Origin: Stichopus chloronotus | Taxonomy: Eukaryota > Echinodermata > Holothuroidea > Aspidochirotida > Stichopodidae | Assembly (NCBI GenBank): GCA_021234535.1 | Contig: CM037845.1 | Coordinates: 12,358,643-12,422,642 of the forward strand | Length of the DNA: 64,000 nucleotides | Direction: 5' to 3' | Shown here: positions 33,101 through 57,100 of the stretch, in pieces | Numbering within the stretch: position 1 is the stretch's first letter | How the letters are laid out: each line of letters begins with the position of its first letter | The notes under the pieces: model-generated | What the model was told of the DNA's origin: nothing | What the model saw: the letters and a program-made list of their open reading frames with translations, nothing else | The model's database searches: none | Translations under genes and position numbers: made by a program

Positions 33101-36100
33101 TGTGGCCATTTTCAAACGTCGATGGTTTTATGATTTCATAAATTAATTTCATTCTTTCAAACATCAGAGAATAAAACAAAATGACACCCACAATTATTGA
33201 GGGTATCTGATAGTGATTCAAGCACGGGCAGAACGTCTTAAGTGGGAGCGCCTCAAACATAAGCTATGGTGAGGGCTCTGGAGAGAGAAATGTCCTATGT
33301 GTAAGGGGGGATTTTGGCACATGTGGTTTCAATCTTGCGTCTTACTCTATGTGCGACGCACGCTGGTGACACTGTGCTTGTTACCGTAAGCAATTTTTCC
33401 CGATGTCAACGGGCAACACATGGGCGTCGGCTTTATTTATGTGTCCTAATGCACCTCCATATGGCCCTACTAGCTCACCTTTGGTCTCCAGACCTTTTGT
33501 ATTCGAGCCACGTGACAATACCGATGGTTGCTCTGAGACGAGAATATGAACAACGTGTGTTATTATTTACAAATATCATGTGGTATAGATGTACGTTTAT
33601 AGTTTAGGACACACTAAAACTGAAGTGATCTCGAGGTATCTAACATCGTTTATTAGGTCATCCTTTAATTTACTCACAGACAAACACACCTTCAAAGGCA
33701 ACTTGATAAGAAACAAACGGATGGGTTGAATGAGTAAATGATTGAGTGAATGGGTAAATTAATTAATTAATCATTTAATCCCTTAATTTTTAAATTAATC
33801 AATGAAGTAATGAAGAGCAAAGAAACATGACAATGATTAAGGCTTTTACACAAGAAGTATACTGTTTGCCCCGCGGGTGGAGATAATAACTGACATAACT
33901 GAGCGGATATTCCCTCTACAAAAGGCTGCAGTGGTGTAGAACAATTTAGCCCATATTAGATTATTAACTGTGTCTTAGATTTAAAAGTTATATTTGGGCA
34001 AATCAATTAAAAACGTGAGAGACAAACTGATGACAATGAAAGCTTACCTTCGTTATCATCTAGTGGATAAAATAAAAAACAATGAAAAAAAACGTGGATG
34101 AAAAGAATTCAGTACGTTAAAGGTTAGGAAAACTCTGGGGATTGTCTCTCACTAAAATAACGCTATTGAGAATGTACGAAAAATTCAGAGTGAAGCTCAT
34201 CCCTCCGTAATGTGACGGTCATTTCAGAGTCACTGAATATAAAGTAGCTACGCTCGGATTTGCCGACCAAGTTGTGTGCCCCTAGCATGACCCGACGTTT
34301 GACCTTTGCGTCGGATTGAAACGACGCCTCAACGACACATGCAATATGATCTTTGAGTGAAAAAAGTCTTAGACTTACTGCAGCTTTTGTTTCTCCGTTT
34401 ACCTCTTTTGTAAATATCTCTGTCTAATTACCATCCTCTCTAAAATAGCATGTGCTAGTGGTGCACATCTATGTGACACATAACAACTTGAAATAAATGT
34501 TAGAACAATGTAAACCCTTTTTTTCTTTCAATAAAATACAATGGTCGAATTTGGTCGAAAAATGACATAGCAAGAATGTAATGGGGAACCAAGGGACAAA
34601 CGTTTACCTGTTGGTTCTTCTTGTTGAGATGGACCACCTGAGTAAAGATGACATGAATGCAGCCGGGATTATTTTACCTTAAATTTACTGGACACAACAG
34701 CAATAATAATAATATAATAATAATGCTCAGATAGTAACAAATACATTTTGGAATAATACAATACAGGAAATTCTTGGAACGTCAGCCTGGCTTCTTGCCC
34801 CTCCGATTCGTGCAGCCCACAGCTATGCAGAGAAGCACCATTTGCCTTTTGTACCATGAACAGCATAAAAATGTAGTAATAACCACCATGCAGTGTTACC
34901 GACAGTGTAAGGCCTGGTACTAGTTTTGCTACACGAGGAACTCATTCCCCCCAGTTGGTAATTATGACATCACGTGAAAACCTCCACATGGCAAAAATGA
35001 CATTCGTTACGACAACATGTATCCCATGCGTTGATATGAAGGGCAGCTCAGGAAAGCCTAGGCATTATAGGCCTATCTCCTTGACCATTGTTATGTTGCA
35101 ATCTGAGAGAGCTAGAACCATTGTGAGGTAATAGGAATGGCCTCAATACCGTGAGGTTTGGAAATAAGACGATACGAGGTTTACCAGGCTTAGTATGAAA
35201 GGTTTACCTGCTGGTTGCTGTTGCTGAGATCGGGCACCTGAGTAAAGAAAAAGTGAAAATACTTCGCTTTTTATGGCCACAACGACAACAATTCTTAAGA
35301 TTGGTTCTAATGAAATGTTTTAAGTACTTTTTTAATACTCTTTATTATAGATGTCAGCATGTAGGCTATGTTTTTTGTGTCACTTACAACACTAGGGGGC
35401 AGACGTAATGACATTTCTCCGACAAATTGATTTTTCTTGAGATCTTATCAAATGGTATAGCTCCTTCCAGGCAATTGGTTGGATTAAATTTGATTTGCTA
35501 AATAAGTATGTAAATGCAAAAGTGGATCGACCCATTAATCTACATCCTGTGCTAAAAACAGCTCACCACAGTATGATCGTTACTGGGGGTTCGTCAACGT
35601 TGCTTCCATATTATAGTTTCATAGGCAAAGGAACAGAAGGTGCATGGATGGACAAGGGTTGGGCACATGTTCAACTGTCATTGAGATCACACACAAAAAT
35701 AGTTCAACCTTGCCAAATACAACATTGCCTATGAAGGAAGAAGGAATTTAATGATACTAAACTGACGTATTATCAGAAATTACTTGTTACTGAATCATTG
35801 CAAAGCCGAATTCTTACCTCCCTTAGTCAAAGTGAATATTCCACTTTTTGAGCTAAATCGGAATCCTTTAAAACGTCCTTTAAAATCGAGTGGTTGAGAT
35901 TTCTGATCTGATTGAGATGAAGAGAATATTCCATGTTTATTTGGGATAGAGAAGATACAAATACAATTGGTGATAGCAGTATATTATTATCATGTTCTGA
36001 CAAATTCTGTTAATTCACAAAGAACAACATAGTGACCCCGTTACTTAAATTTGAGTTATCTCATTCGAGATTCACTCACATTTTAATCTAATTACATTTT

Positions 36101-54100: not shown

Positions 54101-57100
54101 GCTACAGCATTGTCTAGTTGAAACTATGATTTGAAGTATTTCTTGTACCAGAGTACAATGACATGCACTTATTGCAGCAACAATTGCAGAATGGAGAAAA
54201 CAAAGTGGAAAATCTCGACGAAGGAAATTTAAATAAGTTTTCTGATAAGTTCGACTGTACTTACTAACATTGTTGCAATTCCGTTTTTTGAATTCAGAAT
54301 CGGTGATTGTTTTTCAAATGAATGTAACTCCCTTGGCTACGGCACTCTTTAGGTGAAACTATGATTGGAAGTATTTCCTATATAGTGCTAAAGTTGGGGA
54401 CCATTTCAAAGCCTTAAAGAAGTTTGGTCGTAATGCAAATATTTATTCAGAAACTCTTACTAAAATTTTCAAGTTTACCCACTCAGGCTATACCAGAGTA
54501 GAATGAGAGAGATTTATTGCAGCAACAATTGCAGTAGGGAGAATATGAAGTGGTAAATGTGAATGTCTTTTATAACATTGTTTCAATTTTGTTTCTTGCA
54601 TGAACTTTCTTGCTAAGACATTTTTAATATTATGAAAGAAAAATTGAATCTTCACAAATATTTGGTCTTTGATTGTAACTGTATTAGATTCTTTAAGTAC
54701 GTTTTGAAAAGCAAATAATATATGACCACATTAAGTTCGAAAAGATCCAGACATCCGATTAATTTCCTTATTTTCATTCTTGATAGCAAAATGAATACAC
54801 ATCGGATTACGCTATTATGCAGTTAGCTGTTAATAGACTAAATAAATCGGTATATAATTACGATGCTAGATCATGCTGTTGTACCAGTGTTTATATGCAT
54901 TAGAAAGAAGAGAAATATAAAAAAGAACGGACAAAACGAAGAATGAGATGGTTTTCAATCATCGGCAACAATGTACACTTTGACATACATACTTTAAACT
55001 ATATGTATTCTCATAAGTTTAGAGACAGTTTAAAGGAAATTTTCTCATTTTCAAAGAACCGTCAAATTAAGGTGGAAATCAGGTAACTCACCAGTGTCAG
55101 GAATAGCTGCATTTGAAGGATGTGAAGAGGAAAAGAAAGTTTATATCAATACAACAGTTTTAACATTTGTTTGCAGGTCAGCACCACTTCCAAGTAGTTT
55201 CTCTCAGTTCGATAAAGTGTAACTAATGAACAGTCGGTGTTTTTGAAGTTAAACACCTAGTCAATGACTTAGTAGTCATGCGTATGTACTGAACTTAAGT
55301 TCTCACTTGAGGATCGAACGGAGGTCATTAATATTTTTACACGAACGCTATTTAAACAAAGACAATGACCTTGGCAACACTACATCGCACCACACAATAC
55401 ACAAAAATCTCATACACAGCTTAATTAAAGGGATTTGCTACTGAAGGAAATGGATATTTCTTAAAACAGAACCAGTGTCCATTACCATGGTATGGGGGTT
55501 GAAATTTCTGAAATGGATAATTATAATCTTTCATTTAAGAACCCTTTCAATTGCCATTAATGTATGCCTTTAAGCATTTAAAAGATGCTGAGATCCTGTA
55601 AAGAAGAAAATAACCAAACTTTGATACATCACAAATTAAATTAAGGTTTAAGTTAACAGGTATCTTTTTGCACAGAAATGGTTTCCGATAACGGCCAGAT
55701 TTGCAGGGACTTGGAATTGTGGGAACACACCATGTGAATATATAGATGTGTATCATCGATTGTGTGCGCAAAGCAGCTGTTTTGACAACACCTCTGTGTA
55801 GGGCCGTCGCAACCGGAATGGAGGAAATGTGGGGTTGTCAGAGCGACGTAGTCGGAAAATCTAAAGTACCACTGAATTTTTTCATATCACAGTCTAGCTC
55901 TATCACAGTCATTTCATTTCAGAATAAGATGCCAAATATTGCACCAGATTGTGTTTAAGGTAACCTGGTAATTGAAACAATTTTCATTAAATCTGAAATA
56001 CCAGATGGAATTTCTCATATTTCAATATAGAAGATATTTGGAAAATGTGAAACACCAGTTGGAGTTTTTCATATCTCAGTCTGGCACATTTTATGACATT
56101 GAAAGATACCTTCCATTGCACCAGATTTTGCCTTGTCAGTACACATTTCTCAATAAATTTGACATGTCAGTTGAAATCGCTCATATTAAAGTATAGCAGC
56201 GTTGATAGTAAGAAAATCTGAAATACCAGTTGGAACTTTTTATATCTCAATACAGCACATTTTATAGCATAGAATGCATCTGCCTACTATTGCACCAGAT
56301 TGTATCTAACATTTACTTGGTAATTGACAAATAACTTGAAACACCGATTGGAATTTCCTCTGTTTCAGTGTATAAGCAATGGTAACTGGTATCTGAAATA
56401 CGAGTTGGAACGCAGTTTAACCCAGTAGCACATTTTATGAAGTAGAAGGATGCCAAATATTGCACCAATATGCCTGTAAGGTTATCGGGTGATTGACCAA
56501 ATACTGCACTAGATTGTATCTAAGGTTACCAAACAGATGGAACTTTTCTCCAAAACAAAAAAGAAAGACGGATTACACCCCCCTTGCAACCCTTTCTCAG
56601 GCCATCCATCACTCATCTAATTCTTTTCCCACCAATCAAAATACTTTATGGTATTTGCATAACAGTTTTGTTTCTCATCAAGCTGGTTATCATTTACAGT
56701 TATCGAAATTATCGAAACCAGATATAGCTTTACACTTTATTATGCAGTCGACTTTTGTAGCACTGTAATAAAAAATCTAATCGTTAGAGACTAAAATTGG
56801 TACAACTGTACTGGGACCAGAATTTATCTGAGGAAGTTGATCCCAATAAATTCAAAATATTGTACCAGACTTTATCAAAGGTTACCCGATAGTTAAAAAT
56901 TTCTAAAAAAAAAGAAGAAAGAAAACCAAAAAACTGACATCGTAAGAAATTAAAAGATGTTTAATCACCTTTTCTGGAAATACCAAGAACATTATTCCAA
57001 GAACAGTATTCTAGTTAAGAATAATCCCAATTATTACCATTTTTGCGTAAAATGTTTCTATCATTAATTGAGAAATCACTGTCACAGACTATTACTGTTT

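What the first reader, a model, noticed from the sequence alone, without database searches (positions are those of the whole stretch)
34048..55106. Array of symmetric phase 1-1 microexons (12-54 nt) encoding mucin-like linkers
Between 55 and 34 kb the minus strand carries sixteen splice-flanked segments, most of 12-54 nt. All are multiples of three, all are phase 1-1, and three families recur: A (S/T-rich, 42-48 nt, seven copies), B (15 nt, two copies) and C (15 nt, two copies). Splice sites are conserved within families (AAAATACAG and GTAAATG for A). In the tested type-A case, phase 0 gives a stop while phase 1 is open. A gene built from repeatable microexons can vary its length in units of 4-15 residues by duplication or by alternative inclusion, without frameshift. 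I know of no named family with this design.
Basis: partly seen in the sequence, partly recalled or inferred. Interest (0 to 1): 0.8.

Follow-up and report, generated by a model that had tools for sequence, protein, structure and literature searches.

The report
Giant gene built from tiny exons
The window appears to hold the downstream part of one very large secreted-protein gene whose middle is assembled from scores of tiny in-frame exons multiplied by tandem duplication, a layout known from schistosome and aphid secreted proteins but here found in another animal.

Summary
All sixteen segments are there, each flanked by AG and GT, a multiple of three long, and open in phase 1. Scanned alone they are weak: at their splice scores the opposite strand gives 7 such hits against 22. 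Copies and flanking DNA make the case. The array runs far upstream of the window, to about window coordinate 233,000, in tandemly duplicated intron-plus-exon units, including 19 copies of a 1,013-bp unit with one 15-nt exon each. Distinct high-scoring candidates are symmetric and phase-1 open in 24 of 38 cases on the gene strand against 3 of 46 on the other.

My hand-made model: one gene over about 247 kb, 101 exons (79 of 54 nt or less): signal peptide, two SUEL lectin domains, acidic microexon array, PDG repeats; it may continue into fibrinogen-like, SUEL, VWD and C8 domains. The array is acidic (E 25%, G 15%), mucin-like only in families A and PTT.

'No named family with this design' is wrong: schistosome MEGs and aphid bicycle/megacycle genes share it. 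By the features tested this is no member, but a new variant. No RNA was available.

The parts
61573..61611 (-). microexon E61 (39 nt, EDNDASAPFHALK); copies of 33 nt at 77335 and 143636 outside the window
60931..60966 (-). microexon E609 (36 nt, AFYSNKVGGLKS); copy at 76717
60273..60356 (-). exon E603 (84 nt, EIKTQLRGRIGQKFGSVDGIQTKLNDQT); copy at 76274 identical over 84 nt, flanks 4-7% substituted
55092..55106 (-). microexon B (15 nt, AIPDT), one of 8 intact copies in the locus
48713..48727 (-). microexon C (15 nt, AHGES)
48194..48235 (-). microexon A (42 nt, DTSTTEATTTEDGG)
47779..47820 (-). microexon A (42 nt, GTSTTEATTTEDGG)
45445..45459 (-). microexon B (15 nt, GAPDT)
42186..42200 (-). 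microexon C (15 nt, ANRNS)
38273..38314 (-). microexon A (42 nt, ESSTTVETNTVEGR)
37937..37984 (-). microexon A (48 nt, GSPTTVEVSTTTEERR)
37720..37761 (-). microexon A (42 nt, ESSTTVPTNTVEGR)
37384..37431 (-). microexon A (48 nt), identical to 37937-37984
37164..37208 (-). microexon A (45 nt, GLSTTGLRTTSEEGR)
36657..36710 (-). exon F (54 nt, ESELIQSLIDDIPQLRNQ)
35818..35907 (-). exon G (90 nt)
35208..35237 (-). microexon Q1 (30 nt, GARSQQQQPA)
34608..34637 (-). microexon Q2 (30 nt, GGPSQQEEPT)
34048..34059 (-). candidate microexon D (12 nt, DDNE); single copy, weakest case
33479..33532 (-). exon H (54 nt)
32528..32599 (-). exon I (72 nt; donor score only 0.2)
31463..31546 (-). exon X315 (84 nt, EQENLQRDSTRSSLLNFLPQRNQPIVQA)
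20766..20915 (-). exon J (150 nt)
18712..18792 (-). exon K (81 nt)
15762..15821 (-). exon L (60 nt)
11377..11460 (-). exon VQN (84 nt; acceptor score -1.6)
10392..10865 (-). PDG-repeat exon 1 (Pfam DUF6799 match)
8741..9142 (-). PDG-repeat exon 2
7753..8157 (-). PDG-repeat exon 3 (acceptor score -2.7)
4933..5646 (-). PDG-repeat exon 4
1740..1844 (-). exon T1 (105 nt)
935..1051 (-). exon T2 (117 nt); continues either to a terminal exon 137-55 or, better by acceptor score, to -24..-146 beyond the window
55..137 (-). alternative terminal exon T3 with stop (uncertain)

Best explanation
Most of the segments are real coding microexons of one very large gene for a secreted, modular extracellular protein. 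Phase 1-1 exons can be added, lost or duplicated without changing the frame, and unequal crossing-over between similar introns has multiplied whole intron+microexon units, giving a long acidic linker of tunable length between an N-terminal pair of SUEL lectin domains and a C-terminal block of PDG beta-repeats, possibly followed by fibrinogen-like, SUEL, VWD and C8 domains. Shown by sequence: splice-flanked symmetric units, families, tandem duplication, in-frame length change, domains on the same strand. Inferred: that they are spliced into one mRNA, that crossing-over was the route, that the linker is disordered, and that the protein works in a secreted gel or adhesive through VWD/C8-type cohesion and sugar binding.
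For: Strand control over 32-236 kb: symmetric and phase-1 open in 24 of 38 distinct candidates on the gene strand, 3 of 46 on the other, Fisher p 2e-8 ('distinct' means not letter-identical, so members of one family still count separately and p is too small). Recurrent families: 11 of 24 against 3 of 33 (two of the 11, a 9-nt sub-hit of B and a 78-nt segment, are probably not exons). Copies located by outer intron flank alone: 59 of 68 intact; splice dinucleotides kept 126 of 136 against 1230 of 1575 other AG/GT in the same introns, p 1.4e-5. Some exons are less substituted than flanks: E603 0 of 84 against 4-7%, GEET 5% against 10-27%, A 26% against 30-39%. DNA matches to A, B and PTT were found only in this locus (9, 8 and 3 places); the PDG query matched only the four PDG exons. 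A first exon with a hydrophobic start and two SUEL domains (E 1.9e-17, 1.2e-12) lie upstream on the same strand, readable in phase 1; VWD, C8 and SUEL lie downstream.
Against: No transcript evidence. A acceptors lack a strong polypyrimidine tract (scores -2.4 to 0.9); several other model sites are poor (PDG3 acceptor -2.7, VQN acceptor -1.6, exon I and SUEL1 donors 0.2). Exons were partly chosen by reading frame, so the 101-exon model is a hand-made hypothesis. E609 and P exons are not clearly more conserved than their flanks (14% against 12-14%; 7% against 9-12%). Two searches with the PDG-containing part found no orthologue with the array; the best relative of the downstream part, P0018, is 24% identical and shows no SUEL, PDG or array. 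Five copies fail the intactness test for reasons other than expansion or partial duplication (135394, 162940, 164152, 170829, 231436). LINE and other mobile sequences sit in the introns, so one transcription unit over 247 kb is assumed, not shown.
Confidence: 0.72

Rival explanations
1. Only some families (for example B, GEET, GETG, E603) are used; many copies, including the 19 identical 1,013-bp units and weak-acceptor A copies, are passengers of intron duplications that are skipped or spliced rarely. The gene is real, the long array is mostly non-functional.
For: 19 of 19 DNGGG exons and their splice sites are identical in units that are 97-99% identical, so they carry no evidence of selection. 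A acceptors are weak. Some copies fail the intactness test.
Against: Across all copies tested, splice dinucleotides are kept above background, and the seven A exons of the window, with A flanks 30-39% substituted, all keep frame and sites.
Confidence: 0.35
2. The locus holds two or three neighbouring genes: a SUEL-lectin gene upstream, a PDG-repeat gene, and a VWD/C8/fibrinogen-like gene downstream, with the array belonging to one of them.
For: A possible terminal exon with a stop follows T2 at 137-55; a 7-kb intron with reverse-transcriptase-like sequence separates the first exon from SUEL1, and mobile sequences lie through the array.
Against: Same strand and mostly phase 1; exon -24..-146 joins T2 in frame with a better acceptor (4.7 against 2.1) and further phase-1 exons follow.
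Confidence: 0.27
3. The segments are chance ag..gt stretches in a duplicated, transposon-rich intron, and the shared phase comes from the way they were picked.
For: In the 21-kb region alone the opposite strand gives 7 phase-1-open symmetric hits against 22.
Against: The strand, copy and dinucleotide controls, which do not pick by phase, and the lower substitution of E603 and GEET exons.
Confidence: 0.06

Closest known systems
Schistosome micro-exon genes (MEGs)
   Same: Secreted proteins; most of the coding region in very small symmetric exons, in most cases a multiple of three, 6-81 bp, most often 15 bp, between introns of 0.1-5 kb (PMC10526429 passages; PMC4350168 passages). Here too 15 nt is the commonest microexon size (27 of 79).
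   Different: MEGs have 10-20 very short exons; here about 79 are modelled in one gene, they make only about 30% of the modelled coding sequence, and they sit between SUEL lectin and PDG (perhaps also fibrinogen-like and VWD) modules.
Aphid megacycle gene (bicycle family)
   Same: One extremely large gene with more than 100 microexons, single copy in most aphid genomes examined (Melanaphis sacchari, genus name recalled: 118 exons, about 100 kb, 2092 aa; PMC9168663 passages). The model here has 101 exons, 247 kb, 2276 aa.
   Different: Bicycle exons are almost all phase 2, these are phase 1 (the phase of megacycle exons is not in the passages seen); megacycle has 15 protein repeats each holding several introns, here a repeat unit is often one intron plus one microexon; the passages mention no lectin or VWD modules.
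Sea star footprint protein Sfp1 and Sfp1-like cohesive proteins
   Same: Very large secreted proteins with VWD, C8, TIL and glycan-binding lectin domains (PMC9382459 passages); the region downstream here has VWD, C8 and SUEL.
   Different: No microexon array is mentioned in the passages seen; the gene structure of Sfp1 was not compared, and membership is untested.
Tropoelastin and titin PEVK exons
   Same: Recalled, not checked: long runs of small same-phase exons encoding flexible linkers.
   Different: No call supports or excludes kinship (the elastin paper search, listed nothing).

Membership tests
Schistosome MEG | Short exons in multiples of three, symmetric | tested here: met
   all 16 segments; 79 modelled microexons
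Schistosome MEG | Most of the coding region in microexons | tested here: not met
   exons of 54 nt or less sum to about 2049 of about 6830 nt (sizes, summed by hand); SUEL and DUF6799-type domains present. Holds only if the one-gene model is right.
Schistosome MEG | Signal peptide, secretion | tested here: inconclusive
   hydrophobic N-terminal exon MERKSTTVVLAVCFLATVTASIPAG at 246814 read by eye; no predictor run
Schistosome MEG | Alternative splicing of central exons | not testable with these tools
   no RNA data
Aphid bicycle/megacycle | Internal exons almost all of phase 2 (stated for bicycle genes) | tested here: not met
   16 of 16 open in phase 1, 7 of 16 in phase 2
Aphid bicycle/megacycle | Single gene with more than 100 microexons (megacycle) | tested here: inconclusive
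   101 exons modelled, 79 of 54 nt or less; hand-made model
Sfp1-like cohesive proteins | VWD, C8, TIL together with lectin domain in one secreted protein | tested here: inconclusive
   VWD, C8 and SUEL found on the same strand within 40 kb downstream; TIL-like exon seen by eye only; joining to this gene not shown

The most novel reading that the evidence does not exclude
An independently evolved micro-exon gene in which the unit of evolution is a tandem repeat of intron plus one or a few microexons: a coding 'macrosatellite' (19 units of 1,013 bp, three of 8.4-9.9 kb) whose copy number sets the length of a secreted protein's linker and should differ between individuals, while some 12-15-nt exons (family B) change faster than the introns around them.
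Probability: 0.3. Interest if true: 0.78.

Novelty: new variant of a known kind. Interest (0 to 1): 0.62.

Why it matters
If spliced as modelled, it is a further case of the one-phase microexon design, beside those of schistosomes and aphids, attached to a lectin-bearing extracellular protein. It would show how the design can grow: by duplication of whole intron+microexon units. The 1,013-bp array makes the prediction testable as a copy-number polymorphism. Exons of 12-15 nt are easily missed by gene annotation, so such arrays may be under-reported.

Tried and rejected
Chance rejected as the main account by strand and copy controls. A retroelement as the source of the array: reverse-transcriptase fragments lie in the introns on both strands; I saw no array exon inside one, but did not test it systematically. 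Homologue searches: three gave DUF6799/PDG-repeat proteins (4 and 14 hits) and P0018/P0019; in the first two only the 7,995 and 7,992 candidates sharing most words were scored. Fold of PDG exon 1: all-beta, mean pLDDT 77; best PDB match E 0.011, TM 0.21, so no fold assigned. Species: COX1 not found in the assembly, so the animal is unnamed here. A genome-wide count of the SUEL domain was asked for and not answered. Paper searches for the design: (adhesives: 82; elastin: 96); the listings seen (at most 12 papers each) name no other animal gene of this kind, which is no proof of absence.

The splice-site matrices are generic ones written from memory. The B-exon excess (31% substituted against 9-11% in flanks; 25 of 28 pairs above flanks; 7 of 12 bases between block 3 and blocks 1 and 2 at a 1.8-2.4% background, p 4e-10 and 3e-9, but 0 of 12 between blocks 1 and 2) could be positive selection, mutation or gene conversion from another B copy; counting gaps, 62 of 605 flank windows are as divergent as the exon. 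Families A, P, GETG and GEET do not show it.
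Full report
The window is C17:12358643-12422642 of a 719-Mb, 267-contig genome, evidently an animal, which I could not name (no COX1 in the assembly). Coordinates below are window coordinates; numbers above 64,000 or below 1 lie outside it on the same contig.

Observation. I located all sixteen segments and their neighbours. Each is ag|exon|gt, a multiple of three, and reads open in phase 1. As a bare scan this is not decisive: at the splice scores of the weakest segment the gene strand gives 22 symmetric phase-1-open candidates and the other strand 7. 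The A-type acceptors are weak on the generic matrix I used, which was written from memory.

The array is bigger than the window. Self-comparison of the locus showed a tandem series of 8.4-9.9-kb blocks at 114.6-86.4 kb (95.6-97.3% identical) and older copies down to about 42 kb. Following the families by flanks gave 8 B, 7 P (EQTGDTNNPDTG), 5 GEET (GEETSDNQES), 7 GETG (GETGGNEENEEE) with one decayed further copy, 3 PTT (EIPTTTPKSSTTE) and 3 E61 copies, then 19 copies of a 1,013-bp unit, each with one 15-nt exon (DNGGG), and relatives at 229,454 and 230,617. DNA queries for families A, B and PTT matched only this locus in the assembly (9, 8 and 3 places); such counts are lower bounds, and the A query missed two known copies.

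Are they exons? Four controls that do not pick by phase. (1) Length-variable recurrent ag..gt pairs: both members symmetric in 26 of 82 on the gene strand, 19 of them open in phase 1; 0 of 39 on the other strand (pairs within a family are not independent). (2) Families: all members symmetric and phase-1 open in 11 of 24 on the gene strand, 3 of 33 on the other (two of the 11 are probably not exons). (3) Distinct high-scoring candidates over 32-236 kb: 25 of 38 symmetric, 24 of these phase-1 open, against 15 of 46 and 3 (Fisher 2e-8; family members that are not letter-identical count separately, so the p value is too small). (4) Copies found only by intron sequence 20-170 nt upstream of 13 seed exons: 59 of 68 intact (one place counted twice, because two A seeds were used; the Q seed found none). 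Three of the nine failures are A exons whose E/Q triplets have expanded to 228, 273 and 330 nt and are still open, one is a partial repeat (60514), five are damaged or mis-aligned. Splice dinucleotides are kept 126 of 136 against 1230 of 1575 for other AG/GT in the same introns.

Constraint differs by family. Substitutions per compared base, exon against flanks of 60 and 200 nt: E603 0 of 84 against 4 and 7%; GEET 5% against 10 and 27%; A 26% against 30 and 39%; P 7% against 12 and 9%; E609 14% against 12 and 14%. B goes the other way: 31% against 11 and 9%, with 25 of 28 pairs higher in the exon. Between tandem blocks that differ by about 2%, seven of twelve B bases differ for block 3 against blocks 1 and 2, none between blocks 1 and 2. 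Selection, mutation and conversion are not separated.

The gene. Downstream of the array come phase-1 exons and four PDG-repeat exons (DUF6799 matches); a search with the first found only these four in the assembly. Upstream, after the array, come two SUEL_Lectin domains (E 1.2e-12 and 1.9e-17) and a first exon with a hydrophobic start (246814). Joined, the model has 101 exons, 79 of them of 54 nt or less, 2,276 aa, over 246.8 kb. It is hand-made; some of its splice sites are poor (SUEL1 donor 0.2; PDG3 acceptor -2.7, VQN acceptor -1.6, exon I donor 0.2). The array portion is E 25%, G 15%, T 12%, Q 9%, D 8%, N 7%, S 6% (two of the three E/Q exons included). The stop at 55 may not be the end: exon -24..-146 joins in frame with a better acceptor, and the same strand then carries a COLFI/fibrinogen-like match (E 7e-5, below the curated cut-off), SUEL (5e-17), VWD (3e-10) and C8 (3e-16). 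The downstream part resembles P0018, a 2,598-aa protein with EGF, repeated fibrinogen-like and VWD domains (E 1.8e-84, 24% identity, 64% of the query covered), in which I see no such array.

How it most likely works. Phase 1-1 exons are interchangeable, so duplication or loss of intron+exon units adds or removes 4-16 residues at a time (or whole runs) without frameshift. The result would be a long acidic linker between a sugar-binding head and a beta-rich, possibly VWD-type cohesive tail. Duplication and frame-safe change are shown; splicing, disorder and function are inferred. A secreted gel or adhesive role is the reading suggested by SUEL, VWD and C8, as in sea star and other cohesive proteins (PMC9382459, passages); I give it about one in three.

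Comparison. The design is named: schistosome MEGs (PMC4350168 and PMC10526429, passages) and aphid bicycle/megacycle genes (PMC9168663, passages). Membership is not met for MEGs because microexons are only about 30% of the modelled coding sequence, and for bicycle genes because the phase is 1, not 2. It works like them; by the features tested it is not one of them.

Noticed in passing
outside the window, 203491-222827 (C17:12562133-12581469): About 19 head-to-tail 1,013-bp units, 97-99% identical, each with one identical 15-nt phase-1 exon and identical splice sites; a likely copy-number polymorphism.
   Followed up: partly
outside the window, 114266, 104405, 94550: Family A exons expanded to 273, 330 and 228 nt by E/Q triplets, still open, different in each tandem block.
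   Followed up: partly
L015-L018 (window coordinates about -2700 to -39100), minus strand: Fibrinogen-like, SUEL, VWD and C8 coding segments downstream, possibly the same gene.
   Followed up: partly
window 38467-40024: 1.5-kb AT-rich satellite inside the intron between microexons C2 and A3.
   Followed up: no
window 6677-7045 and 2034-2613: A 23-bp (16 copies) and a 145-bp (4 copies) tandem repeat in introns of the PDG part; relatives of the latter at about -22.5 and -28.5 kb.
   Followed up: no
outside the window, about 117-126 kb: Inverted arms up to 98% identical and ORFs that look, by eye, like an integrase and other parts of a large DNA transposon.
   Followed up: no
window 24-27 kb and 47.9-50 kb: Broken reverse-transcriptase fragments (RVT_1 matches at 24974-25465, below the curated cut-off, and 49382-49963) in introns.
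   Followed up: no
window 4880-10890, minus strand: PDG repeats match DUF6799 proteins of bacteria and other eukaryotes at 25-30% identity; the modelled all-beta fold has no good PDB match.
   Followed up: partly
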